NCBI RefSeq assembly: GCF_002872335.1
Contig: NZ_NJAG01000026.1
Coordinates: 20,025-84,024 of the forward strand
Length of the DNA: 64,000 nucleotides
Source: Siphonobacter sp. BAB-5405
GTDB taxonomy: Bacteria; Bacteroidota; Bacteroidia; Cytophagales; Spirosomataceae
Direction: 5' to 3'
The notes under the pieces were generated by a model that saw nothing but the letters and a program-made list of their open reading frames with translations, did no database searches and was not told the origin of the DNA. The translations under genes and the position numbers were made by a program. Position 1 is the stretch's first letter; each line of letters starts with the position of its first letter. Positions 1 to 19,852 of the stretch are shown here, in pieces.

Positions 1-1323
1 GGTGAACAGAGTATTGACCACTAGAAAGGCACAGAAGATCAGGAATAAGCCGGGTACAATTGGATACCCAATAACCTTATACGGACGGTTGACGTCCGGC
101 ATTTTTCTACGAAGAATGAATACCCCTAAAGTGGTAGCTCCGTAGAAAATGAAGGAGGCAAAAATGAGCATATCGGTTAATTGATCGAAAGTACCGGATA
201 AAATCAGCACCGAAGACCAGAAGCCCTGAATCCACAATGCCTTGGAGGGTGTGTTGAAAACTGGGTGAATGTAGTTAGCTGTTTTAAAGAATAAGCCGTC
301 TTTGGCCATGGCATAAAACAGACGGGAAGCCATGAGAATGGTACTGCTTGTACAGTTGAACGTTGTGACCAGGATTAGTAATGAGATGGCTAAACCTCCG
401 CCATTCCCCAAAAAGTGCTTCACAGCCACTACCGCAGCAATACCATTCTTGGATTGATGGACCGCAATAATGTCGTCAATTGGTAAAACGTAGAAGTAAA
501 CAAAGTTCATCAAGAGATAAATCGTCATGATGATGAGCGTGCCAATGGTCAACGCCCAGGGCAAGTTTCGCTGCGGGTTACGAATTTCACCGCCAATGTA
601 GCCAAGGTTATTCCATCCTTCGTACGCCCAGAAAGCACTTAAACACGCCAAGGCTAATGCACTCGCCAGTGTACCACCTGACATTTTATCGGCGTCGAAA
701 TTCACCGAAGGCTGTTCAATATTCGCCCAACTGCCCGTAGCGGAGAACAGACCTAGAACGATAATGACCAGCATGGTGGAAATCATGGCTACCGTCAGAA
801 TTCGGCTAATGGTTTCGCCCATTTTCAACCCCCGGGCATTGAGAAGCGTTAGAATCAGTACCAGTCCGATGGCTACCAGTTTGACACTCAGGTTATCCAG
901 TGGTTGTAAACCAAATACGTGTATGGCAGCGAGTGATTCAGGGGTAGCGGGCAACGTAATAAGCGAGCCTAACGACTGAGCAAAAACGTAGGAAATGGAA
1001 GCAATAGAGGCCGTTCGAATAACTGCGAAGTTGGTCCAGCCTAGTAAAAAAGCAAAAAATCGATTGTAGATCGTACGAAAATAAACGTATTCACCCCCTG
1101 AATCCACCAGCATACTGGCTACTTCAGCGTTACTGAGCGTTCCGGCCAGACTAATCATTCCGGCCAGTAACCAGGCCGCCAGTACCAGTCCTGGTGACTG
1201 CAATTCCGCCGACATGGGGGCGACTTTCTTAAACACGCCCGTTCCAATAACGGCACTAATCACGAAAACAATTCCGGAGACCAGACCAATCGAACGCCGA
1301 AGGTGACCCTGAGATTCAGGCAT
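1..1323 (-). CDS. APC-family amino acid permease (3' end cut by window edge)
   Basis: Seen: an open minus-strand frame from the ATG at 1321-1323 to the window edge, 441 residues, with about eleven hydrophobic segments. The N-terminus has the helix-breaking GTG at residues 27-29 within VIGTGVF, typical of the first unwound helix of APC/LAT transporters, followed by a second conserved stretch (WLLAGMISLAGTLSNAE, WTNFAVIR). Known: such proteins are inner-membrane secondary transporters for amino acids, often exchangers. The substrate cannot be told from sequence alone. The C-terminus, probably the last one or two helices, lies outside the window. The gene is transcribed away from purB. Confidence 0.9.
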   Translation of the reverse strand, partial: MPESQGHLRRSIGLVSGIVFVISAVIGTGVFKKVAPMSAELQSPGLVLAAWLLAGMISLAGTLSNAEVASMLVDSGGEYVYFRTIYNRFFAFLLGWTNFAVIRTASIASISYVFAQSLGSLITLPATPESLAAIHVFGLQPLDNLSVKLVAIGLVLILTLLNARGLKMGETISRILTVAMISTMLVIIVLGLFSATGSWANIEQPSVNFDADKMSGGTLASALALACLSAFWAYEGWNNLGYIGGEIRNPQRNLPWALTIGTLIIMTIYLLMNFVYFYVLPIDDIIAVHQSKNGIAAVVAVKHFLGNGGGLAISLLILVTTFNCTSSTILMASRLFYAMAKDGLFFKTANYIHPVFNTPSKALWIQGFWSSVLILSGTFDQLTDMLIFASFIFYGATTLGVFILRRKMPDVNRPYKVIGYPIVPGLFLIFCAFLVVNTLFT

Positions 1324-1396
1324 ACAAGCAAATTTTAGTTGGGAAAAGCGGTTAGATGAAAAAGCAAATTCGGAAAAAAATGGCGAAGTTGGTATA

Positions 1397-1624
1397 GTTT
1401 TCGGTTTAGAGTTTTCGTGTAGCCTAGCTGACTACCCGGTTTCTTACTGAGTGATAGACAAGTGTACACCATACCTATACTATGCTTCTGAGGTTACTTG
1501 TGATTAACCGCTTGGTTGCAAAAGCAGTTGGAAACTGCTTCATAGTAGGTACAGGTTTGGAAGCCTGCAACAGTGGATAACTCAAAACCCTAAACTCAAA
1601 ACCCAACCCGCAACCCTAAACCCG
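1397..1624. repeat. Heptamer-periodic tract, split G/T arm and A/C arm
   Basis: At 1397-1417 three consecutive heptamers read GTTTTCG, GTTTAGA, GTTTTCG. At 1583-1624 the sequence is built of A/C-rich sevens such as CTCAAAA and CCCTAAA. The two arms are roughly complementary in opposite orientation and enclose about 165 bp. The same architecture appears at 18.5 and 20.1 kb. Confidence 0.5.
1522..1540. repeat. 19-nt perfect hairpin (8-bp stem, 3-nt loop)
   Basis: AAGCAGTT, loop GGA, AACTGCTT. Same geometry (8+3+8) as the hairpins of the REP-like units at 41.6 kb, though the sequence differs. It is followed at 1549-1575 by an imperfect inverted repeat resembling the one at 48741-48770. Confidence 0.5.
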
Positions 1625-1634
1625 ATTCTCTATG

Positions 1635-1642
1635 TAACTTTG
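1635..1642 (+). promoter_or_regulatory. -7 promoter box TAACTTTG for purB
   Basis: Exact match to the Bacteroidota TAnnTTTG -7 consensus, 21 bp before the ATG at 1664. It overlaps the in-frame TTG at 1640, so that upstream start is excluded. No clear -33 TTG at the expected distance. Confidence 0.65.
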
Positions 1643-1663
1643 TCTTTTACGAAGCAAATCAGT

Positions 1664-3010
1664 ATGGCTCTTACTACCCTTACGGCTATTTCGCCCGTAG
1701 ATGGCCGCTATCGTCGGACTACGGAATCGCTGGCCCCCTTTTTCTCTGAATTTGGGTTAATACACTATCGGGTTCGGATAGAAATCGAATATTTTATCGC
1801 TCTTTGTGAGCTTCCCCTGCCCCAACTCGCTGGTTTTGACACCTCGCTGTTCGATCAGCTACGGTCTATTTACACCGAGTTTTCCGAAGCAGACGCCCTG
1901 CGAATTAAAGAAATTGAGAAGACGACCAACCACGATGTAAAGGCGGTTGAGTACTTTATCAAAGAAAAACTCGCCGATCTGTCCATTGAGCAGTACCTGG
2001 AGTTCATCCATTTCGGACTCACTTCGCAGGATGTGAATAACACCGCTATTCCCCTTTCGCTCAAAGAAGCGATGGATGCCGTCATCAATCCAGCTTTCGA
2101 GGAGGTTATCTATAAGCTGAGTTCACTAGCGGCTTTGTGGAAAGATATTCCATTACTAGCCCGTACGCACGGTCAGCCCGCGTCACCGACCCGCTTGGGA
2201 AAAGAACTACAGGTATTCGTCGAACGCTTGCAGCAACAGCGAAACCTGCTCGTTCAGATTCCCTATGCAGCAAAATTTGGTGGAGCGACGGGTAATTTTA
2301 ACGCTCACCACGTAGCCTATCCCGGCTTCGACTGGCCGGAATTCGGAAATGATTTCGTAAGTAGTTTGGGATTATCGCGGAGTCGGTATACCACGCAGAT
2401 CGAACATTACGATCATTTAGCAGCGATGCTGGATACGCTCAAACGTCTGAATACGATTCTCATCGATTTCTCACGGGATGTGTGGAGCTACGTATCCACC
2501 AATTACTTCAAGCAGAAAATCAAAGCGGGGGAAGTTGGTTCTTCCGCCATGCCGCATAAGGTCAACCCCATCGATTTCGAAAATGCGGAAGGAAACCTGG
2601 GTGTAGCGAATGCCCTGTACGAACACCTGTCGGCCAAGTTACCCATCTCTCGTTTGCAACGGGATCTTACGGATTCAACCGTACTGCGGAATCTGGGAAT
2701 GCCCCTGGCTCATACGCTTATCGCTTTGAAATCGCTGGTACGGGGTATGGACAAACTGGAGTTGAACGAAGCCGCTATCCACGCGGACCTTGAAGCCAAC
2801 TGGGCCGTAGTAGCTGAAGCGATTCAAACGGTATTACGTCGCGAAAGTTATCCACAACCGTACGAAGCATTGAAGGCTCTTACCCGAAAGAACGAAGCAA
2901 TCACGGCGAAGACCATTGCCGAGTTTATCGAGACGCTGGACGTAGCAGAGGTTATCAAAGCCGAATTACGGGCTATTTCGCCGTTTAATTACCTCGGTGT
3001 AATGGAATAA
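1664..3010 (+). CDS. purB: Adenylosuccinate lyase
   Basis: Cleaves SAICAR to AICAR and adenylosuccinate to AMP, releasing fumarate, in cytosolic purine synthesis. 448 residues, the usual length of the longer PurB type. It begins with the family start LTAISPVDGRY and carries the fumarate-lyase superfamily signature GSSAMPHKVNP at about residues 292-302, whose serine is the catalytic acid/base in characterised members. The TH segment ARTHGQPASPTRLGKE near residue 170 is a second conserved active-site region. The ATG at 1664 was chosen because a -7 box covers the upstream in-frame TTG. An exact DnaA box lies inside the gene at 2848-2856. The gene is monocistronic by context. Confidence 0.97.
   Translation: MALTTLTAISPVDGRYRRTTESLAPFFSEFGLIHYRVRIEIEYFIALCELPLPQLAGFDTSLFDQLRSIYTEFSEADALRIKEIEKTTNHDVKAVEYFIKEKLADLSIEQYLEFIHFGLTSQDVNNTAIPLSLKEAMDAVINPAFEEVIYKLSSLAALWKDIPLLARTHGQPASPTRLGKELQVFVERLQQQRNLLVQIPYAAKFGGATGNFNAHHVAYPGFDWPEFGNDFVSSLGLSRSRYTTQIEHYDHLAAMLDTLKRLNTILIDFSRDVWSYVSTNYFKQKIKAGEVGSSAMPHKVNPIDFENAEGNLGVANALYEHLSAKLPISRLQRDLTDSTVLRNLGMPLAHTLIALKSLVRGMDKLELNEAAIHADLEANWAVVAEAIQTVLRRESYPQPYEALKALTRKNEAITAKTIAEFIETLDVAEVIKAELRAISPFNYLGVME
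2848..2856 (+). promoter_or_regulatory. DnaA box TTATCCACA within purB
   Basis: Exact consensus 9-mer, the first of eight between 2.8 and 7.7 kb. Confidence 0.55.
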
Positions 3011-3036
3011 GGCTAAAAAGAGCGTTTCATTCGATT

Positions 3037-3076
3037 TGTGGACAAGGGATTTGAATGTGGAAAAAACTGTGGATAA
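3037..3076 (-). promoter_or_regulatory. DnaA box (exact) plus a one-mismatch box downstream of purB
   Basis: TGTGGATAA at 3068-3076 is an exact DnaA box on the minus strand. TGTGGACAA at 3037-3045 differs by one base. Both lie in the purB-sbcD intergenic region. Confidence 0.55.
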
Positions 3077-3134
3077 CTTGTTGACAATCAATTTTTAATC
3101 GACTGAAAATCGCTTGGAGTTAGCCACTGAGATT

Positions 3135-3162
3135 TTGATAGAAAAATGGAGCTGTACTTTTG
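3135..3162 (+). promoter_or_regulatory. Promoter (TTG, 17 bp, TACTTTTG)
   Basis: TACTTTTG at 3155-3162 matches TAnnTTTG exactly and TTG at 3135-3137 is a plausible -33 element. It points at a gene-free stretch that ends in a strong terminator at 3269, suggesting a short independent transcript. Confidence 0.6.
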
Positions 3163-3167
3163 TGCAG

Positions 3168-3269
3168 CTATAAATCATTCTCAGCGACCTCAAAAAGCCA
3201 TTTTGTAGAGCCGTTAACAAAATTTTGGCGAGAGCCCCGGTCGGTCATTCAGGCCCGCCGGGGTTTTTT
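3168..3269 (+). ncRNA. Candidate small RNA of about 100 nt upstream of sbcD
   Basis: Seen: a consensus promoter at 3135-3162, no convincing reading frame, an internal imperfect hairpin (GCCA-TTTTGT at 3198-3207 against ACAAAA-TTTTGGC at 3217-3229), and a GC-rich terminator at 3235-3269. The interval between likely start and U-tract is about 100 nt. It does not contain recognisable SRP RNA, RNase P or tmRNA motifs; a Bacteroidota 6S-like RNA is possible but unproven. Alternatively it is an attenuated leader of sbcD, whose ATG lies only 26 bp past the U-tract. Confidence 0.4.
3235..3269 (+). terminator. Rho-independent terminator before sbcD
   Basis: CCCCGG at 3235-3240 pairs with CCGGGG at 3258-3263, followed by six T. 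Confidence 0.8.
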
Positions 3270-3283
3270 CGTGGCGAATGTTT

Positions 3284-3291
3284 TATTTTTG
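3284..3291 (+). promoter_or_regulatory. -7 box TATTTTTG abutting the sbcD start
   Basis: Exact TAnnTTTG match ending 4 bp before the ATG at 3296. With the usual 4-7 bp to the start site, transcripts would begin at or within the start codon, i.e. be leaderless. Confidence 0.5.
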
Positions 3292-3295
3292 AAGA

Positions 3296-4501
3296 ATGAA
3301 GATTTTACACACGGCGGACTGGCATTTGGGAAAACGCCTGTATCAAACGGATTTGCTGGAAGACAGTCGCCGCTTTGTAGAGTGGCTGCTGGCAACGATT
3401 GAAGAACGACAGATTGATGTGCTGCTGGTGGCGGGCGATATTTTCGATACGGCTCACCCATCGGTGGAAGCCATGCAGGTATACTATGATTTTCTAAAAG
3501 GACTCATCGCTTCCAAGTGTCGCCTAGTCATTACGGGTGGCAATCACGATTCGGCGGCGGTCCTGAACGCTCCCCGTGAAATTCTGCGATTACTCGACGT
3601 TCACGTTATTGGTGGTGCCTGTGACGATTGTTGCGAGGAGGTACTGCCCCTACTCGACCGCCGGGGTAATCTACAGGCGGCCGTAGCGGCTGTACCTTTT
3701 CTGCGGGATCGAGATCTGAAGCGTTCAGTTGAGGGAGAAAGTTTTGAAGATCGCCGGATGGCCGTGCGAGCGGGTATTCAGCGTCGGTATGAGCAGGTGC
3801 ACGCCCACGGTCGGAAAACGTACGCAAGCGTACCTGTGTTGGGAATGGGGCATTTGTTTGTCAACGGCTCGGCTACATCGGACAACGACGAAAAACTGCA
3901 CAGCATCGGTACGCTGGATTTATTCGAAGTCAACTTGTTTCCAGCCTTCGATTATCTCGCTCTCGGACATATCCACCGACCCCAGATGCTGGGTAAAATG
4001 GAATACGTTCGGTACTCAGGCTCACCAACGGCCCTGAGTTTCAGCGAGCGGCTGGATGAAAAGCTAATTATTCAACTGGAAATCAAAAACCAGAAGGTTG
4101 TTGATATTCAAGAACTTAAAGTGCCGAAGTTTCGACAATTGCGGCGGTTTAGCGGTTCGTTTACCGAAATTGAAGCAGCCGTTCATGCCTACCAACATTC
4201 TGATGTGTTACGGACGCTGGCTGAAATTGAGATTCTGGAAGAACACCGCGATCCGATGCTGATTGACGTGGCCAAGAGCTATTTTCTCAAACTCAACCAT
4301 CCCTACCTATCCGTACTCAACTGGCGGTTCCGTTTTCAACAACAGTTAAAAACGACGGATGAATTGTTTGGTGAGACGATGGCCCTGCCCGAACTGGCTC
4401 CAACGGAGGTATTTGAACAATGGCTCCAGGAAAATGCGGAGACGGAAGAATCCAAAACCTTACTTACCGAAGCCTTTCAAGAATTACTACATAGTCTGTA
4501 A
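3296..4501 (+). CDS. sbcD: Exonuclease SbcCD, nuclease subunit D
   Basis: Mre11-type metallophosphoesterase that, with SbcC, opens DNA hairpins and processes blocked double-strand ends. 401 residues, normal for the family. Metal-binding motifs are in order: DWHLG (residues 8-12), GDIFD (about 48-52), GNHDS (about 82-86) and GHIHRPQ (about 222-228). The C-terminal part is the SbcC-binding and capping region. sbcC follows after 53 bp that contain two tandem DnaA boxes, so the pair is an operon. The ATG at 3296 gives the conserved family start MKILHTADWHLG and has no room for a leader if the adjacent -7 box is used. Confidence 0.96.
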   Translation: MKILHTADWHLGKRLYQTDLLEDSRRFVEWLLATIEERQIDVLLVAGDIFDTAHPSVEAMQVYYDFLKGLIASKCRLVITGGNHDSAAVLNAPREILRLLDVHVIGGACDDCCEEVLPLLDRRGNLQAAVAAVPFLRDRDLKRSVEGESFEDRRMAVRAGIQRRYEQVHAHGRKTYASVPVLGMGHLFVNGSATSDNDEKLHSIGTLDLFEVNLFPAFDYLALGHIHRPQMLGKMEYVRYSGSPTALSFSERLDEKLIIQLEIKNQKVVDIQELKVPKFRQLRRFSGSFTEIEAAVHAYQHSDVLRTLAEIEILEEHRDPMLIDVAKSYFLKLNHPYLSVLNWRFRFQQQLKTTDELFGETMALPELAPTEVFEQWLQENAETEESKTLLTEAFQELLHSL

Positions 4502-4504
4502 GAG

Positions 4505-4526
4505 TTATCCACATAAGTTATCCACA
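4505..4526 (+). promoter_or_regulatory. Tandem DnaA boxes between sbcD and sbcC
   Basis: Two exact TTATCCACA at 4505-4513 and 4518-4526, same strand, 13 bp apart start to start. They fill most of the sbcD-sbcC gap. Confidence 0.65.
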
Positions 4527-4554
4527 TTTTACAGCGGGGGGTTGATAAGATCGC

Positions 4555-7500
4555 ATGCGTATTCTAAAAGTATCTTTCGAAAATATAAATTCACTACGGG
4601 GACAGCATACCATTGATTTTCAGAACGAAACGGCCTTTCGTACGTCCAACCTGTTTGCGATTACCGGGCCAACGGGAGCGGGAAAGACCACGATTCTGGA
4701 TGTGATTACGCTGGCTCTATACCACCGTACCCCCCGATTAGGCGAAGTCAATACCAATTTGCTGGAAAAACTCGGCGGTATACTCACCCGTGATACACAC
4801 GTGGCTCAGGCCGAAGTGACGTTTTCCACACCCGGCGGTACGTATCGGGCCAAGTGGAGTTTAGAAAGAGATACTATTAGTAAAGGGATTAAGAAAGGGC
4901 AGTATAAGTTAGAAGAGTACTTCGAAATTGCCGATGTGGATAACAATGTTATACTGGCATCCAAGAAGAAAAAAGAAGTACAGGAAGAAATCAAAAAACG
5001 AATTGGACTGGATTACGAACAGTTCGTCAAGGCCATTTTGCTTTCGCAGGGTGATTTTGCGGCTTTTCTAAAAGCGAAACGGGAAGAACGAGCCGAGTTG
5101 CTGGAACGGATTACGGGCACGGAAATCTACCGAAAGCTCGGGATGGAAGCGTATGCCCGCTGGCATGATGGCTACAAAAGGGAAATTGAGCAGAAACAGC
5201 AATCGCTTGATTTACAGAAGCTTTTATCCGATGAAGACGTTACCGAATACGAAACGTTCATTAAAGAGTACGACGAGCTTTGCCGACAGGCCGAAGCTGG
5301 ACGCAAAGGCTTGGAAATTCAATTGCAGCGAAAAGTACGGATTAGTGAAATCTGGAAATCGCTGGAAGCCATCCGGCAAACGGAGTGGCCCACCTGGGAC
5401 CGCGAGCAACGGCAGTTCGACGAACAGCATACCCCCGCCCTGAGTCGGCACGAACGGGTACAGCAGTTTTCAGCCCAGTTAACGGAATATCAGATCCAGG
5501 AGCAAAACGTAAAAAATGCTCAGATCCAGGCGGAACGACTGGCCAACGAATATCAGCGGGCCCAGCAAAACCGTACGCAGCTGCTGGGAGATATTGCCAA
5601 ACTGACGGGTGAACTGGTAACGGATCAATCGGCTCAAAGTGGACTGGAACGGTTTCGGGAAACGGTTTCGGGACTGATTACCGCTCGTCAGGAAGTGGCT
5701 CAGCAGTGGCAATCGGCGAAAGAACAAGGGACGTACTGGCTCGATAAAACGGGTTCGGGGGAATTACAATCCCTCTGGAAACGGGAATCGTACGGCGATT
5801 GTCTGGGCAGTTCGCGGGAATTGTGGAAAGAAACGCAACGGCGTCAAACGGACATACGAACGCTGTATAACTGGGATACGCAGGCCAATCTGCCCGAAAT
5901 TCGCCAGCAATCGCAGGCTCGCCGCGATGCTTTACAACAACTGGAAACACAGGTTCGTCAGTACGAAACCGTTCGCCGACGATTGGCTGACTACGATCGT
6001 CAGGTAGACGAACAACGAAAGCTGATACGGGCTAATGAACCCGCTTTACAAACGGCTCAGCAGGCCGTTACAGAAGCTAAGAATTTAGTACAGATCGCTC
6101 AGGAAGAGCAACTTACCTTTATTCGGGAAACCTCTATTCCCCGGTTGCGTACGGAGTTACGTCCGGATGAACCCTGTCCCGTTTGTGGCTCTATGGATCA
6201 TCCCGCTGAAAATAGTAGCGATGATCATTTTAGCATCGAACGTTACTTGCAGGAATTAGCCAGTTTAAAAGCCCGTTTTGAAGCTCGTGAACGCTCGCTG
6301 AGTACGACGGAGCAGCAACTGCGGCAGGTCGAACTTGTGACCAAAGCTGCGGAAGCAACGATTCAAACCCTGGAGCGGGAGAAAACCCAGGCCCAGATGG
6401 AACTCCAGCCCATTGCGGAAGCGGTGGGAATGTGGAAAACTCAGTTAGCCATTGAAAAGATTGGTAAGTCAGAAGAAATAAAAGGCTGGGTACAGGCGGA
6501 GGTCGAACGATTCCAGTTGCTCGAAGAACTTATTCAGCTACAGGAACGGAGCGATAGTCTGGCTCATTTTGGGAAACACCTGAAAAATGGCCTCGAATTC
6601 TTCCAGAAACAGCAGGAATTCACCGCAGAGCTACAGAAACGCTATCCAAAAGACCCGAAATATCTAAACGCTGAGTGTGACGAACTGCTTCGCAAATTGG
6701 TACAAAAAACCTTTTCGCCGCAGCAGTATGAACCAGAGCTTGTGGAAAACAAAAGGCTCCTTCTGGATACGCAAGGAGTTTTCCACCAGTTGCAGACAAA
6801 GTTATCCACAGAGTTATCCACATCGGGCTTTGCCAGTGTGGAAGAAGCTCGGTCAGCTTTGTTGTCTACTGAGTTATACCGCACCCTGGTTGAGCGTAAA
6901 GACCAGCTCATTCGCCGGAGAACCCAACTGGAAACCCAGATGGAGAATCTGACGAAGGAAGTAGAAAGTCTGATTCAGGCCGACGATTCGGATTTGTCGA
7001 TTGATGTGTTGAAAAGTCGAATGGAGGATTACCGCAATTCTGAACGGGAGTATCTACAGAAAATTGGTGGCTGGAAGCAATCATTGAAGGATAATGAAAC
7101 GAGCCGGGCCGAAAATGCCCGCCGGATTGCGGAAATCGCGGATCTCGAACAACGCTATAAAAAATGGCGACTACTGGCCGAAGGGCTGGGTGACCGCGAA
7201 GGAAAGAAATTCAACCAGTTTGCTCAGAAATTAACCCTGGCGAATCTGGCCCGTTCGGCGAATAGTCGTTTGAAGGATTTGTCGGATCGGTACCTGCTCC
7301 TGCCACCCGAAGGCGATGAGGAAAACCTGTGGGTACTTGACCGGAATTTTGACGAACGCCGGGCGGTAGCTACGCTCTCGGGCGGAGAAACCTTTCTGGT
7401 AAGCTTGGCTTTGGCCTTGGGTCTCAGTGATATGGTATCGAAAAACGTCCGGATTGAAAGTCTGTTCATCGATGAAGGTTTCGGTACCCTTGATCCCGAT

Positions 7501-7662
7501 ACGCTGGAAATTGCTCTGGGAACGCTGGAAAAATTACAGGCCGAATCTAACCGCATGATCGGGATTATTTCCCACGTGGAAGCCCTGAAAGAACGAATCA
7601 CTACCCAAATCCGGCTTCGGAAACAGGCCAGCGGATTCAGTGAAATGGAAATTGTCGGGTAA
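4555..7662 (+). CDS. sbcC: Exonuclease SbcCD, ATPase subunit C
   Basis: Rad50-type SMC-like ATPase that pairs with SbcD to sense and cut DNA ends. 1035 residues, in the family range. Walker A GPTGAGKT is at residues 38-45; the Q-loop region QGDFAAFLKAK is near 170. Two long glutamine- and glutamate-rich coiled coils flank the zinc hook CPVC at 541-544. The C-terminal head has the ABC signature LSGGE at 941-945 and Walker B LFIDEGFGTLD from 970. The frame is intact throughout. Two exact DnaA boxes lie within the distal coiled-coil coding region. It is cotranscribed with sbcD. Confidence 0.97.
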   Translation: MRILKVSFENINSLRGQHTIDFQNETAFRTSNLFAITGPTGAGKTTILDVITLALYHRTPRLGEVNTNLLEKLGGILTRDTHVAQAEVTFSTPGGTYRAKWSLERDTISKGIKKGQYKLEEYFEIADVDNNVILASKKKKEVQEEIKKRIGLDYEQFVKAILLSQGDFAAFLKAKREERAELLERITGTEIYRKLGMEAYARWHDGYKREIEQKQQSLDLQKLLSDEDVTEYETFIKEYDELCRQAEAGRKGLEIQLQRKVRISEIWKSLEAIRQTEWPTWDREQRQFDEQHTPALSRHERVQQFSAQLTEYQIQEQNVKNAQIQAERLANEYQRAQQNRTQLLGDIAKLTGELVTDQSAQSGLERFRETVSGLITARQEVAQQWQSAKEQGTYWLDKTGSGELQSLWKRESYGDCLGSSRELWKETQRRQTDIRTLYNWDTQANLPEIRQQSQARRDALQQLETQVRQYETVRRRLADYDRQVDEQRKLIRANEPALQTAQQAVTEAKNLVQIAQEEQLTFIRETSIPRLRTELRPDEPCPVCGSMDHPAENSSDDHFSIERYLQELASLKARFEARERSLSTTEQQLRQVELVTKAAEATIQTLEREKTQAQMELQPIAEAVGMWKTQLAIEKIGKSEEIKGWVQAEVERFQLLEELIQLQERSDSLAHFGKHLKNGLEFFQKQQEFTAELQKRYPKDPKYLNAECDELLRKLVQKTFSPQQYEPELVENKRLLLDTQGVFHQLQTKLSTELSTSGFASVEEARSALLSTELYRTLVERKDQLIRRRTQLETQMENLTKEVESLIQADDSDLSIDVLKSRMEDYRNSEREYLQKIGGWKQSLKDNETSRAENARRIAEIADLEQRYKKWRLLAEGLGDREGKKFNQFAQKLTLANLARSANSRLKDLSDRYLLLPPEGDEENLWVLDRNFDERRAVATLSGGETFLVSLALALGLSDMVSKNVRIESLFIDEGFGTLDPDTLEIALGTLEKLQAESNRMIGIISHVEALKERITTQIRLRKQASGFSEMEIVG
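6802..6822 (+). promoter_or_regulatory. Tandem DnaA boxes inside sbcC
   Basis: Two exact TTATCCACA at 6802-6810 and 6814-6822, 12 bp apart. They encode part of the coiled coil (KLSTELST), so the boxes are kept in spite of coding constraint, or are chance products of the repeated LST codons. Confidence 0.5.
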
Positions 7663-7673
7663 ACTAATTCGAG

Positions 7674-7692
7674 TTATCCACAGTTATCCACA
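7674..7692 (+). promoter_or_regulatory. Tandem DnaA boxes between sbcC and map
   Basis: Two exact TTATCCACA at 7674-7682 and 7684-7692, 10 bp apart, i.e. about one helical turn, in the 62-bp sbcC-map gap. Confidence 0.65.
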
Positions 7693-7724
7693 AGCAATAC
7701 CTTTATTCACAAATTAGGAAACAT

Positions 7725-8489
7725 ATGTCGATTACCTCACAGGCCGAATTAGCGGGAATGCAACAGGTGAGCGAAGCCGTCGGGCTGACCCTCAAGGAAA
7801 TGCGAGCGTACGCCCGCCCCGGTCTCACGACGAAAGACCTGGATAATTTTGGTGGAAAGATTCTTAAGAAACTGGGAGCCCGCTCGGCTCCTCGCCTGAG
7901 TTACGGTTTTCCCGGCTGGACCTGCATCAGCGTGAATCACGAAGTAGCCCACGGCATTCCTACCGCCAAAAAAGTACTTCGCGAAGGTGACCTGATTAAT
8001 ATCGACGTATCCGCCGAGCTGAACGGCTTTTGGGCGGATAATGGCGGTTCATTCGTACTGGGACAGGATACCCGGAAGCACCAGCCGCTGGTCAATACGT
8101 CTAAAGAGATTTTACATAAGGCGATTCACCACATCAAAACGGGCGTACGCATTGCGGATGTTGGTTTACTGATCGAAACGGAAGCAAAAAAAGCGGGGTA
8201 CCGGGTGATTAAAAACCTGGCTGGTCACGGTATTGGCCGCAAATTACACGAGGAACCGAGCAGTATTCTGAATTGCTACGACCGTTTTAACAAGGCTCGT
8301 TTCAAGAAAAACTCGGTGGTAGCCATTGAAACGTTTATCGCCACGGACTCCATGTACGCTAACGAAACCAACGATGGCTGGACGCTGATTGGCAACCGGG
8401 GCGGATTTGTGGCTCAGCACGAGCATACCATTGTCGTTACGGATGATCAGCCGCTGATCCTTACGGCGATGAACGAAATCTGGAATTAA
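7725..8489 (+). CDS. map: Methionine aminopeptidase, type I
   Basis: Removes the initiator methionine from nascent proteins. 254 residues. The pita-bread fold's five metal ligands can be recognised: two Asp in INIDVS and WADNGG, His in GHGIG, Glu in VAIETF and Glu in QHEHT. The substrate-binding His lies in NHEVAHGIP. Note QHEHT instead of the more common QFEHT. It sits at the end of the sbcCD run, separated by two DnaA boxes, and converges on the next gene with a 5-bp gap. It may be a second, non-ribosomal-operon copy, which cannot be judged here. Confidence 0.95.
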   Translation: MSITSQAELAGMQQVSEAVGLTLKEMRAYARPGLTTKDLDNFGGKILKKLGARSAPRLSYGFPGWTCISVNHEVAHGIPTAKKVLREGDLINIDVSAELNGFWADNGGSFVLGQDTRKHQPLVNTSKEILHKAIHHIKTGVRIADVGLLIETEAKKAGYRVIKNLAGHGIGRKLHEEPSSILNCYDRFNKARFKKNSVVAIETFIATDSMYANETNDGWTLIGNRGGFVAQHEHTIVVTDDQPLILTAMNEIWN

Positions 8490-8494
8490 GAAAT

Positions 8495-8989
8495 TTAGTT
8501 TCGCCGCAATACGACACGTTGCAGATGATCGACGGAGTAGTTGACGACGGATTGCGGCGAACCTTTTTTCCCGGAAGTAACCTCAAAAATTAACTCATTT
8601 TCCCGCAGTTCATACGTGGAGGTGAGCACAATTCCTTCTGTTTCAAATACGCTATACAGCTTATTTCCAAAGCGATAGCTCGTTAACTCCGTTCCGTCGC
8701 GTTCGTCCACGAGGTACAGGCCCGTAGCGGCATCTTTCAATCGTAACCGGTAATCTTTGACGGCTGGCTGTTTTGCGGAAAGGTACTCGGTTTTCCAGGA
8801 CCAGCTTTCCAGCTCGGTAGTTTTTCCCACCGTCAGCCGAACGGTAACCGTATCGCGTAGTTTTCCACGAGCAAAGATTTCCATCCGGCCCGTCCACGTA
8901 CCTACGCAGGCTTCCCCAAACGGGACCTGAGCGGTGGTTGGCTGAAGAAAAATCCACAGGCAAGCGAGTGTACTCAAAAGCGTTTTCAT
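8495..8989 (-). CDS. Secreted hypothetical protein
   Basis: 164 residues with a clear signal peptide (residues 1-20, cleavage after TTAQ). The rest alternates polar and hydrophobic residues as in a small beta-barrel, with WTGRME near residue 32 and regular strands to the end; a lipocalin-like or calycin fold is a guess. No catalytic motif is recognised. It has a single-gene setting, convergent with map and 31 bp past tsaC's end on the same strand, so it lies upstream of nothing and may be the last gene after a weak promoter of its own. Confidence 0.6.
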   Translation of the reverse strand: MKTLLSTLACLWIFLQPTTAQVPFGEACVGTWTGRMEIFARGKLRDTVTVRLTVGKTTELESWSWKTEYLSAKQPAVKDYRLRLKDAATGLYLVDERDGTELTSYRFGNKLYSVFETEGIVLTSTYELRENELIFEVTSGKKGSPQSVVNYSVDHLQRVVLRRN

Positions 8990-9020
8990 GCCGTCAGTAG
9001 AAAGTAAAAAGCGAGTATTT

Positions 9021-9956
9021 TTACTCGGCCGCGGCTCTTCTGATCCGGTCGTTGATTGCAGTTCCCAAATCCCGTTCGGGTACTAATTCGGCGTAGATCC
9101 GGTCGAGGCCCAAAGCATCTAATCGTCGCATGGCGGCAAAAAGATTATGGGCTGCTTCGGCAAAATCACCCGTTACGGAGAGAATTTCCTGATGCAACCG
9201 GCCGTAATCATTCTGGAAACTAAGCACTCCTACTCGATCTGAGTTTGGTACCGAGGCAGAATCGTTTATCAAGGTCAGTGGCGTACGGGGGGCGTAATGA
9301 CTTTTCAACATGCCCGGAGCCTGTGGATTCGAGCTGGAATGAGCCCGTACCTCGACAGGGCCTACCAGTTGTTCAATGCGTTCGATGGGCGTACCTCCCT
9401 TGCGGTACACAATGACCTGATCGCCTTCAAAACCCACAATGGTTGACTCCACGCCTACCTCGCAGGCTCCCCCATCCAGAATATAAGCAATCTGCTCCCC
9501 CAGTTGCTGTTCGACGTGCTGAGCGGTGGTAGGACTGATGTATCCAAACGGATTTGCACTCGGAGCCGCCAGCGGAAAGTCTAGTTGACTCAACAGCGAA
9601 AGGCTTAGCTCGTGTCGGGGAATGCGTACGGCGACGGTATCCAGACCGCTGGTCACCAGATCAGGTACGGATTCGGCTTTGGGTAACAAAAATGTAATCG
9701 GACCCGGCGTTAAGTGTTCCGCCAGTACCAAAGCCTTCTCGGGGATTTCCCGCACAAACTCCCGCAAACGTTCAAAAGCGTTCGTATGCACAATGAGCGG
9801 ATCGAAGGCTGGACGGTTTTTTACCCGGAAAATAGATAGTACAGCCGCCGGGTCGAGGGCATTACCCGCTAGACCGTACACCGTTTCGGTGGGAATGGCG
9901 ACGAGTTCTCTCTGTTCCAAAAAGGCCTTTGCTTGCTGTATATCCGTACCAATCAT
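9021..9956 (-). CDS. tsaC: Threonylcarbamoyl-AMP synthase (Sua5 type)
   Basis: Makes threonylcarbamoyl-AMP from threonine, bicarbonate and ATP for the t6A37 modification of ANN-decoding tRNAs. 311 residues: an N-terminal YrdC domain (about 1-195) with AIPTETVYGLAGNA, PGPITFLLPK, VAVRIPRH and the APSAN loop, then the extra C-terminal Sua5 domain (about 200-311), so it is the longer Sua5 form rather than the short TsaC form. A -7 box (TATTTTTG on the minus strand, 10007-10014) lies 51 bp upstream of the ATG. Confidence 0.95.
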   Translation of the reverse strand: MIGTDIQQAKAFLEQRELVAIPTETVYGLAGNALDPAAVLSIFRVKNRPAFDPLIVHTNAFERLREFVREIPEKALVLAEHLTPGPITFLLPKAESVPDLVTSGLDTVAVRIPRHELSLSLLSQLDFPLAAPSANPFGYISPTTAQHVEQQLGEQIAYILDGGACEVGVESTIVGFEGDQVIVYRKGGTPIERIEQLVGPVEVRAHSSSNPQAPGMLKSHYAPRTPLTLINDSASVPNSDRVGVLSFQNDYGRLHQEILSVTGDFAEAAHNLFAAMRRLDALGLDRIYAELVPERDLGTAINDRIRRAAAE

Positions 9957-10006
9957 TCTTCTTAATTTTCAGTCTTTTGTTGCCGTTCACAGAGTAGGCT
10001 TTCCGA

Positions 10007-10014
10007 CAAAAATA
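10007..10014 (-). promoter_or_regulatory. -7 box TATTTTTG for tsaC
   Basis: Plus strand reads CAAAAATA; exact TAnnTTTG on the minus strand, 51 bp before the tsaC ATG. Confidence 0.55.
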
Positions 10015-10030
10015 CGGTTGACTTAGGTAC

Positions 10031-10061
10031 AAAACAAAGCTGCCAGCTTGGGGCTGGCAGC
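10031..10061 (-). terminator. Terminator downstream of the SIMPL gene
   Basis: 9-bp stem GCTGCCAGC / GCTGGCAGC with a 5-nt loop; on the minus strand it is followed by TTTGTTTT. Confidence 0.75.
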
Positions 10062-10084
10062 GAATGACTGAAAAGAAATAGCGA

Positions 10085-10804
10085 TTATTTGATTCGGAAA
10101 GTAACCTGAATGCGGGAGGTGAACTTTACTTTCTGGAATTCCAGATCACTTTGACCTACCTCCTCTGTATCAGCTTTTACCATACGAGCCATTGGCATTT
10201 GCATCATTTGATACGTTGGCGTATTATAACTGTCTTCAGTTTCACTGATTTCCAGCACTTCTCCTAATTTGTTACCCAGCGATTCGACCAAATACCCGGC
10301 TTTTTCCTTCGCATTTTGCAAAGCCTTAATTTTTACCTCTTTGCGTAACTGCTCTTTTTTGGAATAATCCACCCGGCTAATGTGGGTATTGGCAACGCCA
10401 CGGGAATCCACTTTTGAAAGCAAGTTATCCACATCGTACAACTTGGCTAATTTGAGCTGGTATTGTTTGCTTTCCAGAAACTGAGCCGGGTTTTTCTTTT
10501 TGCCAATGCTGTTCTGGTAACCCGTGATTCCCTGAATGGTCAGGGCGTCTTTGGGCAAACCCGCTCCCTGTACCGACTGAATCAATTGTTTTTCCAGAAT
10601 ATCGATGGTGACTTTATCTTTCTGGTTTTTCTCGTCTTTATAAAACTCTTTAAGGCTAATGGTCAGGTAAAATTCATCCGGATCGACTTCTACTTCGGAA
10701 GTTCCGGTTACTTCAATTTTACGAACGGGTTCTTTTTCCACGGTTTGAGCGAATGCGGCAGTGCTGAAAATGAAAGAAGCGGCAAGCAAAAGAATGTTTT
10801 TCAT
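10085..10804 (-). CDS. SIMPL-domain (DUF541) periplasmic protein
   Basis: 239 residues. Signal peptide at 1-19 (MKNILLLAASFIFSTAAFA), then a SIMPL/DUF541 domain (about 28-235) with the opening IEVTGTSEVEVDPDEFYL and the conserved ALQNAKEKAGYL helix near residue 160. Known: the family includes periplasmic OMP28-like and BP26 antigens of unclear function, possibly oligomeric channels or oxidative-stress factors. The ATG at 10804 was chosen over one 66 bp upstream because it begins the signal peptide. An exact DnaA box falls in the coding region (10425-10433), probably by chance. Confidence 0.88.
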   Translation of the reverse strand: MKNILLLAASFIFSTAAFAQTVEKEPVRKIEVTGTSEVEVDPDEFYLTISLKEFYKDEKNQKDKVTIDILEKQLIQSVQGAGLPKDALTIQGITGYQNSIGKKKNPAQFLESKQYQLKLAKLYDVDNLLSKVDSRGVANTHISRVDYSKKEQLRKEVKIKALQNAKEKAGYLVESLGNKLGEVLEISETEDSYNTPTYQMMQMPMARMVKADTEEVGQSDLEFQKVKFTSRIQVTFRIK

Positions 10805-11005
10805 GGCTTTGTAAGAATTAGTTTTTGAATCGTTTACACCCAGTAGATGCGATCGATCCAAAAATTCCATACGGAGAAGGTGTTAATGAAAGTTAAAGAT
10901 AAATTGGAAATGATAAGGTGAATAAAAAAGGTTGATAATGAATGATTTATGACTAAATTGAATTTTTGAAATTCCTATAAATACGAAAGAAACCGGGTGC
11001 TGTCT

Positions 11006-11488
11006 TTACACTTCCAGACGTAACACGCTTGAATTATCGGTGCATACGTCCAGTAATCGTTGCTGGGTTAGCTGTAACACGGGATGGATGAAATCGGGGG
11101 CAATCTCGGCCAGCGGTACCAGCGTAAAACGTCGTTCCGCCAGATAAGGGTGAGGAATACTCAGTTCTGGTTCGTTAATGACTTCCGTACCGTAGTACAA
11201 CAAATCAATATCGATCAGACGGGCTCCCCATTTTTCTTTTCGTACCCGACCCAATTCCATTTCAATGGCCTGCGTACGCCGGAGCAGCTCTAAAGGCTCC
11301 CATTCGGTATCTACTTCGATTACCTGATTCAAAAAGGCGGGTTGATCCGTCAAGCCCCAGGCGGCCGTTTCCCACAAACTCGACTCGACGCGGATGGGTC
11401 CGATCGTGTCTTCAATACGTTTCCGGGCTTGTTGAAACGTGGCTAGCCGATCGCCTAAGTTGGCTCCTAAAAGTAAGAATACGTTCAA
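11006..11488 (-). CDS. folK: 2-amino-4-hydroxy-6-hydroxymethyldihydropteridine diphosphokinase
   Basis: Transfers pyrophosphate from ATP to hydroxymethyldihydropterin in folate synthesis. 160 residues from the TTG at 11488, matching the usual length. Motifs: LLLGANLGDR at the N-terminus and the HPPK signature RLIDIDLLYYG near residues 92-102; NQVIEVDTEWEP is the substrate-side strand. No ATG exists in frame near the N-terminus; a TTG start is supported by a -7 box at 11519-11526 (TACATTTG) whose start site would fall just upstream. The frame stays open further upstream but that would put the promoter inside the coding sequence. Confidence 0.9.
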   Translation of the reverse strand: MNVFLLLGANLGDRLATFQQARKRIEDTIGPIRVESSLWETAAWGLTDQPAFLNQVIEVDTEWEPLELLRRTQAIEMELGRVRKEKWGARLIDIDLLYYGTEVINEPELSIPHPYLAERRFTLVPLAEIAPDFIHPVLQLTQQRLLDVCTDNSSVLRLEV

Positions 11489-11518
11489 AATACAGATTGA
11501 ATGGTCGTCGTATGCGTA

Positions 11519-11526
11519 CAAATGTA
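11519..11526 (-). promoter_or_regulatory. -7 box TACATTTG for folK
   Basis: Exact TAnnTTTG on the minus strand, 31 bp before the proposed TTG start; it fixes the folK N-terminus. Confidence 0.5.
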
Positions 11527-11576
11527 AAAATAGAGTACCGGGAAACACCAGTAACCGGAAAGAAGGGTACCCAAAT

Positions 11577-13115
11577 CTACGTTCCCCAGCTCTCCCGGTC
11601 CAGACTTCGGTACTGAATGGCCTCAGCCAAATGCTCAATTTTGATTTCGGGAGAGCCTGCCAAATCGGCGATGGTACGAGCTACCCGCAGAATCCGGTCG
11701 TACGCTCGGGCCGAAAGTTGCAATTTATTCATGGCTGTCTTCAGTAACATCTTACCCGCTTCACTGAGGTCACACACTTTCCGTACCAACTCCGACGGCA
11801 TCATCGCATTGCAATAAACGCCCGCATGTTCAGTGAACCGTTCCGTCTGTATTTCCCGAGCCTTAATCACCCGCTCACGAATGGCGGCACTCGCTTCCGA
11901 CTTGCGGGTAGAAGATAATTGCTCAAAATTGACCGGGGTCACTTCCACGTGTAAATCAATCCGATCCAGTAAAGGGCCGGATATGCGGCTCAGGTACTTG
12001 CTGACGCTACCGGGCGGGCAGGTGCATTCCTTTTCGGGATGATTGTAGTATCCACATGGACAAGGGTTCATACTGGCAATGAGCATGAAATTAGCCGGAA
12101 ATTCCACCGCCCACCGAGCCCTCGAAATACTGACGGTCCGCTCTTCCAGCGGTTGCCGCATGACTTCCAGAGCCGACCGCTTAAACTCAGGGAGTTCGTC
12201 CAGAAACAGGACACCATTGTGAGCCAGTGAAATCTCGCCGGGTTGCGGCATACCACCGCCACCCACCAGGGCGGCATCCGAAATCGTATGGTGCGGATTC
12301 CGGAAGGGGCGACGGGCAATGAGGGTGGCCCGACTGCCCAGCTTGCCCGCCACGGAGTGAATCTTCGTTGTTTCAAGAGCCTCGTGTAAAGACAAGGGCG
12401 GAAGTATACTGGGAAGGCGTTTGGCCAGCATGGTCTTTCCCGCCCCCGGTGGTCCGATCATGATCACGTTATGCCCACCGGCGGCGGCAATTTCCAGCGA
12501 GCGTTTGATATTTTCCTGGCCCTGTACGTCAGCAAAATCGGTTTCGTATTCGTTGAGGGTGGTCAGAAAAATGTCCCGTGTGTCGGATGTGGTAGGTTCA
12601 ATATCTAGCGTCCCCCTCAGAAAATCCACTGCCTCGCTGAGCGTATCGACGCCAATCACGTCGATATTATTGACAATGGAAGCCTCCGAAGCATTTTCTT
12701 TCGGTAAAATGAATCCTTTGAACTGGTTTTTGCGAGCTTCGATGGCAATGGGCAGTACTCCTTTGATGGGTCGCAATTTGCCGTCAAGTGAAAGCTCACC
12801 CATGATTAGGTATTCTTCCAGCTTTTTCAGGTTCGCCTGTTCCGAAGCGTGTAATACACACAAGGCAATGGGCAAATCATACGCGGAGCCTTCTTTACGT
12901 ACATCTGCCGGAGCCAGGTTGATTACGGTCTTTGTTCGGGGATAAAAGTAATCGTGATATTTGATGGCGGCTTCCACGCGTTGCACGCTCTCTTTCACTG
13001 CACTGTCGGGTAATCCCACCAAAAAAGTACCTGTACCCTGTCCTACCGTTACTTCAACGGTAACGAGGGTTGCATTCACGCCGAAAATGGCCGCTCCGTA
13101 AGTCTTTGCCAACAT
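11577..13115 (-). CDS. YifB/ComM-family Mg-chelatase-like AAA+ ATPase
   Basis: 512 residues. N-terminal ChlI-like S5-fold domain (about 20-145), AAA+ core with Walker A GPPGAGKT (about 218-225) and Walker B LFLDELPEF (about 301), a zinc-like CPCGYY...CTCPPG segment (about 350-367), and the Mg_chelatase C-terminal domain. Known: ComM in naturally transforming bacteria is a hexameric helicase that promotes branch migration; other members are uncharacterised. A perfect -7 box lies 26 bp upstream. Together with comF at 56.6 kb and the DNA-repair genes nearby this is compatible with DNA uptake or recombination, which is inference. Confidence 0.93.
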   Translation of the reverse strand: MLAKTYGAAIFGVNATLVTVEVTVGQGTGTFLVGLPDSAVKESVQRVEAAIKYHDYFYPRTKTVINLAPADVRKEGSAYDLPIALCVLHASEQANLKKLEEYLIMGELSLDGKLRPIKGVLPIAIEARKNQFKGFILPKENASEASIVNNIDVIGVDTLSEAVDFLRGTLDIEPTTSDTRDIFLTTLNEYETDFADVQGQENIKRSLEIAAAGGHNVIMIGPPGAGKTMLAKRLPSILPPLSLHEALETTKIHSVAGKLGSRATLIARRPFRNPHHTISDAALVGGGGMPQPGEISLAHNGVLFLDELPEFKRSALEVMRQPLEERTVSISRARWAVEFPANFMLIASMNPCPCGYYNHPEKECTCPPGSVSKYLSRISGPLLDRIDLHVEVTPVNFEQLSSTRKSEASAAIRERVIKAREIQTERFTEHAGVYCNAMMPSELVRKVCDLSEAGKMLLKTAMNKLQLSARAYDRILRVARTIADLAGSPEIKIEHLAEAIQYRSLDRESWGT

Positions 13116-13140
13116 AGTTTTCTTACCTAAAATCAGGTAG

Positions 13141-13148
13141 CAAACTTA
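13141..13148 (-). promoter_or_regulatory. -7 box TAAGTTTG for yifB/comM-like gene
   Basis: Plus strand CAAACTTA; exact TAnnTTTG on the minus strand, 26 bp before the ATG. Confidence 0.6.
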
Positions 13149-13202
13149 AGCGGTTTAGGAGTTATAGCGGATAGGGCCCGGTATTTAACCAGAACCAAAG
13201 CC

Positions 13203-13252
13203 ATAAAAAAGCAAGAACGCGTTGGTAATCAATTGATTACCAACGCGTTCTT
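13203..13252 (-). terminator. Terminator built on a perfect 40-bp palindrome
   Basis: Positions 13213-13252 are perfectly self-complementary with no loop (centre AATT). On the minus strand it is followed by GCTTTTTTA, so it terminates the topoisomerase gene. A 20-bp stem is far longer than the other terminators here. Confidence 0.8.
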
Positions 13253-13297
13253 CGTGTACATGCTAACTAATGTCGAATACATATTTAGGGAACGGTA

Positions 13298-14401: not shown

Positions 14402-14456
14402 AAAGTTAAAGGGTTGTGGGTTTCAGAGAAGGTATCACCTTCCCAACAAATATCAA

Positions 14457-14756
14457 TTACAGCAGCGGATCGTCTTCCTTAATCGGAGCTTCGTCATGCT
14501 GGCTATGGCGATCGGCGTCCTGCTGGTGGCGGTCGGCCCGGTCAACACTTCCCCGTTCGCGAATATTTACTTCTGTTTCCATATCAGTTGGATCAAACTC
14601 GCCCTTTTCGTTCTCAAAGGATTGTTCGTAATTCTCAACCCCTTCACTTTCCAGAGCCTTCAGTTCAGAGGGGTTCAGGCCCAGATATAACTTTTCCGGC
14701 TCCTGCTTCTCCGTGTTTTCTCTCAGTCCACTGTTTTCTTTCGGTTCGGTATTCAT
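14457..14756 (-). CDS. Small acidic hypothetical protein
   Basis: 99 residues, rich in Glu, Asp and Gln, no Cys, no signal or membrane segment; predicted largely disordered. A possible short helix is LYLGLNPSELKALESEGVEN. Not recognised. It sits 55 bp upstream of topoisomerase IB on the same strand and may be cotranscribed. Its low complexity makes coding status less sure than its neighbours. Confidence 0.5.
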   Translation of the reverse strand: MNTEPKENSGLRENTEKQEPEKLYLGLNPSELKALESEGVENYEQSFENEKGEFDPTDMETEVNIRERGSVDRADRHQQDADRHSQHDEAPIKEDDPLL

Positions 14757-14911
14757 GGCTGTTGGCTATTATTTTGAGCATGAAATAGGATAAAAAAGAG
14801 TGCCTTCATGAATTTCCCCCGAATCTAAAGCCCTTTGATGTAGAAAATATTCCCTTGTTTTTCTGATTTCAACCCTGTTCAGGAAACTAGTTATTATGCT
14901 TGCATACTATT

Positions 14912-14939
14912 TTGATAATGGTATCTTTGCTAGAGTAAA
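14912..14939 (+). promoter_or_regulatory. Promoter (TTG, 17 bp, TATCTTTG) of the Fe-S operon
   Basis: TATCTTTG at 14932-14939 is an exact -7 match with TTG at 14912-14914; the ATG follows 29 bp later. Confidence 0.65.
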
Positions 14940-14968
14940 TTGATTTTTTCGAGCAAAACAAAGAAGAT

Positions 14969-16291: not shown

Positions 16292-16312
16292 CCATTTCAA
16301 AGCAATTCGTGT

Positions 16313-17104: not shown

Positions 17105-17107
17105 GCC

Positions 17108-17896: not shown

Positions 17897-17900
17897 TCCT

Positions 17901-19833: not shown

Positions 19834-19852
19834 GAATCAGCCGATTAAAAAC

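What the first reader, a model, noticed from the sequence alone, without database searches (positions are those of the whole stretch)
2848..7692. Cluster of eight exact DnaA boxes across purB, sbcD, sbcC and map
TTATCCACA (either strand) occurs at 2848, 3068 (minus), 4505, 4518, 6802, 6814, 7674 and 7684, i.e. eight in 4.9 kb, where chance predicts about 0.08. Six are in three direct-repeat pairs spaced 13, 12 and 10 bp, and four lie in the short gaps around sbcC. This could be a DnaA titration (datA-like) site, a part of the origin, or DnaA control of sbcCD. Four further boxes are scattered in the other 56 kb (10425, 14146, 19202, 41295), so the count outside is also above chance.
Basis: partly seen in the sequence, partly recalled or inferred. 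Interest (0 to 1): 0.78.

Follow-up and report, generated by a model that had tools for sequence, protein, structure and literature searches.

The report
Origin-side sponge for replication starter DnaA
Beside the predicted replication origin of Siphonobacter bacteria, about 25 kb of ordinary genes carries 15 to 23 perfect copies of the binding word of the replication starter DnaA, which likely soak up DnaA and would help keep the chromosome from being copied again too soon.

Summary
The cluster is the centre of a belt of 15 exact boxes, 2.3 to 26 kb to one side of a predicted oriC that lies 5.2 kb left of the window, in a 0.57-kb lipoprotein-TPR gap near mnmG. That gap is packed with box variants but holds no exact box in this genome; dnaA is elsewhere. 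Five of 6 Siphonobacter genomes have the belt (15, 15, 23, 22, 23 boxes); S. aquaeclarae has 0 but keeps purB-sbcD-sbcC-map. Most boxes lie inside genes, beyond synonymous-codon shuffles, and are conserved far above other 9-mers, yet places differ between clades. A second genus has 17 boxes in 16 kb beside the same gap, with thrC after fadD and no sbcCD in that contig. So density goes with the origin, not with sbcCD. Best reading: an origin-proximal DnaA titration belt. Such enrichment is known in E. coli and B. subtilis; this compact, one-sided, largely intragenic form is a new variant. Most other genera examined show only a short halo. DnaA binding and any effect on initiation are untested.

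The parts
1..20445 (.). Window part of the belt, which runs from +2.28 to +25.96 kb of the oriC centre. oriC itself is outside, at G000:C84:14221-14799, i.e. 5804 to 5226 bases left of the window start; two further belt boxes are left of the window at C84:16779 and 16984. The window box at 41295 lies outside the belt.
2848..2856 (+). exact DnaA box, inside purB; shared by 5 of 6 Siphonobacter genomes
3068..3076 (-). exact DnaA box, purB-sbcD gap; shared by 4 of 6; one-mismatch boxes at 3037 and 3056 beside it
4505..4526 (+). pair of exact boxes 13 apart, sbcD-sbcC gap; only in G000 and G001
6802..6822 (+). pair of exact boxes 12 apart, inside sbcC in frame (Leu-Ser-Thr-Glu-Leu-Ser-Thr); second box shared by 5 of 6, first only in G000 and G001
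7674..7692 (+). pair of exact boxes 10 apart, sbcC-map gap; only in G000 and G001; one-mismatch box at 7703
10425..10433 (+). exact box inside the ORF 10085-10870; shared by 5 of 6
14146..14154 (+). exact box inside the ORF 13298-14401; shared by 5 of 6
19202..19210 (+). exact box inside the ORF 18571-19833; shared by 5 of 6

Best explanation
The boxes belong to a belt of 15 exact DnaA boxes in about 25 kb on one side of a predicted replication origin, and they likely act as a high-affinity sponge that would hold the initiator DnaA away from that origin until the sponge is full. Shown by the sequence: the belt, its conservation as a 9-mer, its place beside a 0.57-kb gap packed with imperfect boxes, and its independence of sbcCD. 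Inferred: that the gap is oriC; that DnaA binds the belt more tightly than oriC because the belt boxes are exact and the oriC boxes of this species are all one or two bases off; that newly made DnaA would fill the belt first and oriC last; and that the fork would copy the belt within the first 26 kb of replication, adding 15 to 23 empty high-affinity sites (21 to 34% of all exact boxes) at once and lowering free DnaA, so that the new origins would not fire again.
For: Enrichment: 15 of 71 exact boxes in 25.5 kb, no reversed-9-mer match there; sharp edges, +2.3 to +23.5-26 kb, then no exact box before +47 to +52 kb in 5 of 5 belted contigs; TTATCCACA is the commonest canonical 9-mer of the belt in those 5. 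Origin: lipoprotein-TPR gap with 12-21 box-like 9-mers (up to 2 mismatches) in each of 6 species; order mreB, rnr, ybeY, mnmG, lipoprotein, TPR kept in 6 of 6; cumulative GC-skew minimum 3-13 kb from the gap in 3 of 3 contigs examined; at least 4 boxes with up to 1 mismatch in the 1.6 kb around the start of the TPR gene in 19 of 20 loci from other genera, the 20th contig ending inside the gene. Selection on the word: boxes in ORFs 9, 9, 21, 20, 20 against synonymous-shuffle means 0.58-1.71, none of 200 shuffles reaching them; 9 of 15 boxes identical between G000 and G003 against 8.8% of all 9-mers, 21 of 23 between G002 and G003 against 21.5%. Not tied to single genes: 8 box places common to the five, 6 only in G000/G001, 16 only in the G002/G003/G005 clade, 12 of these in all three; G015, another genus, has 17 boxes in 16 kb beside the same gap, followed by thrC, an SNF2-type helicase gene and a comEC-like gene, with no tblastn match to purB, sbcD, sbcC or map. 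DnaA of G000 and G004 keep the domain-IV stretches PRQ and GGRDHSTV (that these read the box is recalled). Theory: for E. coli, changing number or affinity of titration sites did not prevent premature re-initiation at high growth rates, only placing them near the origin would (PMC9640692, passages). No match over the Hda cut-off in 6 of 6 genomes.
Against: No binding or cell-cycle data exist. S. aquaeclarae (G004) has 0 exact boxes in the same stretch although it keeps the genes and nearly the same DnaA C-terminus, so the belt is not needed in every species; its genome-wide total (76) is as high as the others (64-75), the boxes lying elsewhere. Of 20 loci from other genera, exact counts were 1 to 17 per 7.7-20 kb, mostly at the gap and in the TPR gene; G006 has 17, but 16 of them within 5 kb. 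G074 has fewer exact boxes (40) than reversed controls (60) genome-wide. The skew minimum is 12-13 kb off the gap in G001 and G003, and the third-position minimum of G004 is about 40 kb off. In the single-contig genome G039 the switch at the TPR locus is one of two negative-to-positive switches among 20 samples. The three close pairs on which the finding rests are in G000/G001 only, apart from one box of the middle pair. SeqA, DiaA and YabA were not searched.
Confidence: 0.62

Rival explanations
1. The boxes are sites of DnaA acting as a transcription factor on purB, sbcD, sbcC and map.
For: Six of 14 window boxes lie outside ORFs, and pairs sit 5' of sbcC and of map.
Against: In G002, G003 and G005 20-21 of 22-23 belt boxes are inside ORFs; the sbcC and map pairs are absent there and in G004; G015 has the density with other genes.
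Confidence: 0.08
2. The belt is a set of datA- or DARS-like sites that switch DnaA between ATP and ADP forms, not a passive sink.
For: Close same-strand pairs 10-13 apart recur in belt and oriC; no Hda over cut-off in 6 of 6, so another inactivation route might be needed.
Against: datA is a locus of about 1 kb that needs IHF (passage in PMC5295017); the belt is spread over about 24 kb, mostly in genes, with partly changing places. IHF sites were not sought.
Confidence: 0.12
3. The belt is part of an extended origin: DnaA bound there loops back to oriC and helps unwinding.
For: It starts 2.3 kb from the centre of the predicted oriC, on one side; B. subtilis has a bipartite origin (passage in PMC5295017).
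Against: Boxes with up to one mismatch number 10 in the 0.58-kb gap but 30 in 25.5 kb of belt in G000; the belt reaches 26 kb; it is absent in G004.
Confidence: 0.08
4. Another origin-domain function, such as a nucleoid or segregation anchor made by DnaA or by a protein that reads the same word.
For: The ParB gene is about 700 kb from oriC in G004, on the same contig, and the parS consensus tried had no match in 6 of 6 genomes.
Against: The word is the exact consensus DnaA box and variants of it fill the predicted oriC; a divergent parS was not sought.
Confidence: 0.07
5. Chance or base-composition artefact.
For: None found.
Against: Shuffles, reversed 9-mer, scan statistic, synonymous shuffles and conservation all reject it.
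Confidence: 0.01

Closest known systems
Origin-proximal enrichment of DnaA boxes in E. coli and Salmonella (Olivi et al. 2025, PMC12371093; abstract, section 6 and the first part of section 11 read)
   Same: DnaA boxes above expectation beside oriC, proposed to titrate DnaA and to be duplicated early.
   Different: There an enrichment counted in windows of 2 to 10 centisomes, with about 900 boxes of looser motifs per genome; here a one-sided belt of about 24 kb of the exact 9-mer, 21-34% of all exact boxes, mostly inside genes.
oriC-proximal DnaA-box clusters (DBCs) of Bacillus subtilis (Okumura et al. 2012; seen only as described and cited in PMC5295017; the paper is not held)
   Same: Box clusters outside oriC whose joint removal gave early initiation, i.e. 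a distributed DnaA sink.
   Different: Six clusters there; here a quasi-continuous belt with partial turnover of box places. No deletion data here.
datA of E. coli (passage in PMC5295017)
   Same: Cluster of high-affinity DnaA boxes outside oriC that restrains initiation.
   Different: datA is one locus of about 1 kb with five boxes and IHF; the belt is dispersed over about 24 kb and largely coding.

Membership tests
Initiator-titration region near oriC (E. coli type) | DnaA boxes above composition-based expectation | tested here: met
Initiator-titration region near oriC (E. coli type) | located beside the replication origin | tested here: met
   nearest belt box 2.3 kb from the centre of the predicted oriC; the origin itself is a prediction
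Initiator-titration region near oriC (E. coli type) | binds DnaA and lowers free DnaA in vivo | not testable with these tools
   needs ChIP and tracking or marker-frequency data
B. subtilis DnaA-box clusters | several box clusters outside oriC | tested here: met
B. subtilis DnaA-box clusters | removal gives early initiation | not testable with these tools
   bench work
datA | one compact locus of about 1 kb | tested here: not met
   belt spans about 24 kb, 9 of 15 boxes in ORFs in G000
datA | IHF site required | not tested
   no IHF search was made
oriC (the belt itself) | dense box array in one short intergenic stretch near the skew minimum | tested here: not met
   met by the lipoprotein-TPR gap outside the window, not by the belt
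DnaA regulon promoter sites | boxes at fixed positions 5' of the regulated gene | tested here: not met
   places differ between clades and most boxes are in ORFs

The most novel reading that the evidence does not exclude
Siphonobacter times replication mainly by origin-proximal titration: a sponge of exact DnaA boxes, shifting in evolution, written into the genes beside oriC, the one titration layout that modelling says would hold at fast growth, without Hda; and it arose more than once in the family (Siphonobacter crown and the genus of G015).
Probability: 0.25. Interest if true: 0.78.

Novelty: new variant of a known kind. Interest (0 to 1): 0.62.

Why it matters
Whether bacteria can time replication by DnaA titration is a long-standing question. 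Modelling for E. coli says titration fails at fast growth unless the sites sit near the origin, and sets that layout aside as not matching E. coli (PMC9640692, passages). This belt is such a layout found in nature, and a close relative, S. aquaeclarae, keeps the genes without the belt: a ready comparison. The work also predicts an oriC for a whole family, and shows gene sequences bent to hold a regulatory word.

Tried and rejected
Rejected: chance (shuffles, scan statistic); sbcCD regulation (box turnover, G015, G004); the cluster as oriC (the dense array is in the lipoprotein-TPR gap). I first took a four-box cluster near purH to be kept in G004 because of similar spacings; ORF listing showed that the G004 cluster lies at gatC and a C-N hydrolase, so the claim was dropped. 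A parS consensus found nothing in 6 of 6 genomes while ParB is over its cut-off in 6 of 6, so the consensus tried is probably not the local one. Skew sampling of G039 gave a composite pattern with two negative-to-positive switches: weak support only. The tree of 27 TPR proteins puts G015 with G006, G065 and G010, apart from Siphonobacter; the fork among G006, G065 and G015 is drawn open, and gain against loss in G004 was not tested. Of 59 genomes with the TPR protein (28 genera) I fetched the locus of 20, one per genus, picked by hand for contig length. One search was a useless alignment against a 10-base dummy; only its print of the gap was of use. In one search the ORF picked for the G004 DnaA was a wrong (antisense) one; corrected. 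Prior description was sought; I saw listings and abstract starts, and none of those describes such a belt in Bacteroidota; 0 papers held both 'Siphonobacter' and 'DnaA'. DoriC, subscription papers and preprints were not searched.

Full report
Observation. Dinucleotide shuffles expect 0.46 with a maximum of 3 in 100. With one mismatch allowed there are 37 against 12.85. The whole genome, 6.49 Mb in 246 contigs, has 71 exact boxes and 26 of the reversed 9-mer; 18 of the 71 are on the 84-kb contig C84 that holds the window. Two thousand uniform draws of 71 points never gave more than 6 in any 25.5 kb.

Organism and genes. The four named loci found for SbcC are all Siphonobacter; equal contig lengths identify G002 as SORGH_AS_0500, G003 and G005 as two uncultured bins and G004 as S. 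aquaeclarae DSM 21668. purB, sbcD, sbcC and map lie in this order in 6 of 6 genomes, S. aquaeclarae included.

Where the origin is. dnaA is on another contig, G000:C58. Cumulative GC skew has its minimum at about 48 kb in G001:C8, 64 kb in G003:C8 and 68 kb in the first 200 kb of G004:C18; a gap between a lipoprotein gene and a TPR gene lies at 61.2-61.8, 75.9-76.5 and 64.2-64.7 kb there, so 13, 12 and 3 kb away. The gap, 0.53-0.58 kb, holds 12 to 21 box-like 9-mers with up to two mismatches in each of six species and is 54 to 64% A+T. Two genes separate it from mnmG; ybeY, rnr and mreB lie further left, in the same order in 6 of 6. A family-wide search found the TPR protein in 59 of 61 genomes. 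I fetched 20 of these loci, one per genus: 19 reach into the gap, and all 19 have at least four boxes with up to one mismatch in the 1.6 kb around it; the 20th contig (G012) ends inside the gene. On the single-contig genome G042, 9 of 49 exact boxes lie within 14 kb at this locus; in G074 it is 5 of 40. I take the gap as oriC (inferred). In G000 it is at C84:14221-14799, 5.2 kb left of the window. Limits: the third-position skew minimum of G004 is about 40 kb away, and G039 shows two negative-to-positive switches in 20 samples, one of them at this locus.

The belt. Counted from the oriC centre, exact boxes between +1 and +26.5 kb number 15 (G000), 15 (G001), 23 (G002), 22 (G003), 23 (G005) and 0 (G004); the reversed 9-mer gives 0, 1, 0, 0, 0, 0. 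The edges are sharp: first box at +2.28 kb in 5 of 5, last at +23.5 to +26.0 kb, then none before +46.8 to +52.6 kb. The left side is sparse: one or two boxes at -5.4 kb in 4 of 6 genomes (G004 included), a single one near -17 to -18.5 kb in 3, and 2 to 4 at -30 to -33 kb in all 5 contigs that reach there. TTATCCACA ranks first among all canonical 9-mers of the belt in 5 of 5 belted genomes. It makes up 21 to 34% of all exact boxes of those genomes.

Selection. ORFs cover 87-91% of the stretch and hold 9, 9, 21, 20 and 20 of the boxes; shuffling synonymous codons within each ORF gives means of 0.58 to 1.71 and none of 200 shuffles reaches the observed number. On a 27-kb alignment 9 of 15 boxes of G000 are identical in G003 against 8.8% of all 9-mers, and 21 of 23 boxes of G002 in G003 against 21.5%; none is shared with G004, where 3.5-4.3% of 9-mers are. 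Still, 16 box places are found only in the G002/G003/G005 clade (12 in all three) and 6 only in G000/G001; 8 are in all five. The word is kept, the density is kept, the places partly turn over. That is expected if dose matters, not if single promoters do.

A second genus. G015 (88% complete) has 104 exact boxes in 3.7 Mb against 21 controls. Its 16-kb contig C455 carries 17, with lipoprotein end, gap, TPR, hypothetical and fadD as in Siphonobacter (39.6, 54.8, 33.6 and 64.5% identity for the four proteins), then thrC, an SNF2-type helicase gene and a comEC-like gene; purB, sbcD, sbcC and map have no tblastn match in the contig. The 9-mer ranks first there too, and 13 of the 17 boxes are in ORFs against a shuffle mean of 1.51. 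A tree of 27 TPR proteins groups G015 with G006, G065 and G010 rather than with Siphonobacter, so the long belt may have two origins or have been lost repeatedly; this was not tested. In the 20 loci of other genera exact counts run from 1 to 17 per 7.7-20 kb, mostly at the gap and in the TPR gene; G006 has 17, 16 of them within 5 kb. Twenty sampled 20-kb stretches of G039 away from the locus had none.

Belt and oriC. In G000 and G001 oriC has no exact box and the belt 15; G002, G003 and G005 have 1, 1 and 2 in oriC; G004 has 2 in oriC and 0 in the belt. With so few lineages this inverse relation is only suggestive. Genome totals of exact boxes are 64-76 in all six; those of G004 simply lie elsewhere.

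Mechanism (inferred). Exact boxes are expected to bind DnaA more tightly than boxes with one or two mismatches (recalled). New DnaA would then fill the belt first and oriC last. The fork would copy the belt in the first 26 kb, adding 15-23 free sites at once. Berger and ten Wolde state that neither number nor affinity of titration sites prevents premature re-initiation at high growth rates and that only placing the sites near the origin would, which they set aside for E. coli (PMC9640692, passages). Olivi et al. then reported origin-proximal enrichment in 56 E. coli strains and one Salmonella (PMC12371093, section 6). No protein over the Hda cut-off was found in 6 of 6 genomes, the best match being DnaA itself below it; the control search passed the cut-off in 1 of 14 genomes. 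SeqA, DiaA and YabA were not searched. DnaA of G000 and G004 share the stretches PRQ and GGRDHSTV of domain IV, so a changed DnaA does not readily explain the missing belt.

Compared with the known. It works like the E. coli and B. subtilis origin-proximal sinks. It is not datA (not compact) and not oriC. It differs by its tightness, one-sidedness, use of the exact 9-mer, and placement inside genes. I call it a new variant of a known kind. Binding and function are untested.

Noticed in passing
G000:C84:14221-14799 and the same gap in 19 loci of other genera: A family-wide predicted oriC in a lipoprotein-TPR gap near mnmG, not beside dnaA in Siphonobacter.
   Followed up: partly
G000:C91:16463-16919; G001:C8:30614-31070; G002:C29:14572-16537; G003:C8:43934-46104; G005:C49:28252-30422; G004:C18:31764-31911: Two to four exact boxes about 30-33 kb on the other side of oriC, at the 5-formyltetrahydrofolate cyclo-ligase gene where checked (G000, G001), kept even in S. 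aquaeclarae; G042 has three exact boxes about 28.6 kb on that side of its TPR gene.
   Followed up: partly
G000:C84:9063-9083; G001:C8:56062-56082; G003:C8:70800; G004:C18:59087: One or two exact boxes just 5' of ybeY, 5.4 kb left of oriC, in 4 of 6 Siphonobacter genomes including S. aquaeclarae.
   Followed up: partly
G001:C12:42243-42293; G004:C18:280054-280338; G015:C455:6652-7194: Exact boxes on the 5' side of thrC in Siphonobacter, and inside thrC beside oriC in G015.
   Followed up: no
G000:C126:15750-16087; G001:C3:22239-22576; G004:C19:17076-17468: Cluster of 4-5 exact boxes in and beside a C-N hydrolase gene next to gatC.
   Followed up: no
G000:C197:67422-67810 and G000:C197:36425-36952: Four exact boxes 3' of purH, about 30 kb from the ParB gene; in G004 ParB lies about 700 kb from oriC on one contig.
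   Followed up: no
G002:C29:56578-59686: sbcC of G002 is matched in three pieces with stops in two of them (frameshifts or assembly errors).
   Followed up: no
oriC gaps and window 4505-7692: Same-strand box pairs 10, 12 and 13 apart recur in oriC and in the belt, about one helical turn.
   Followed up: partly
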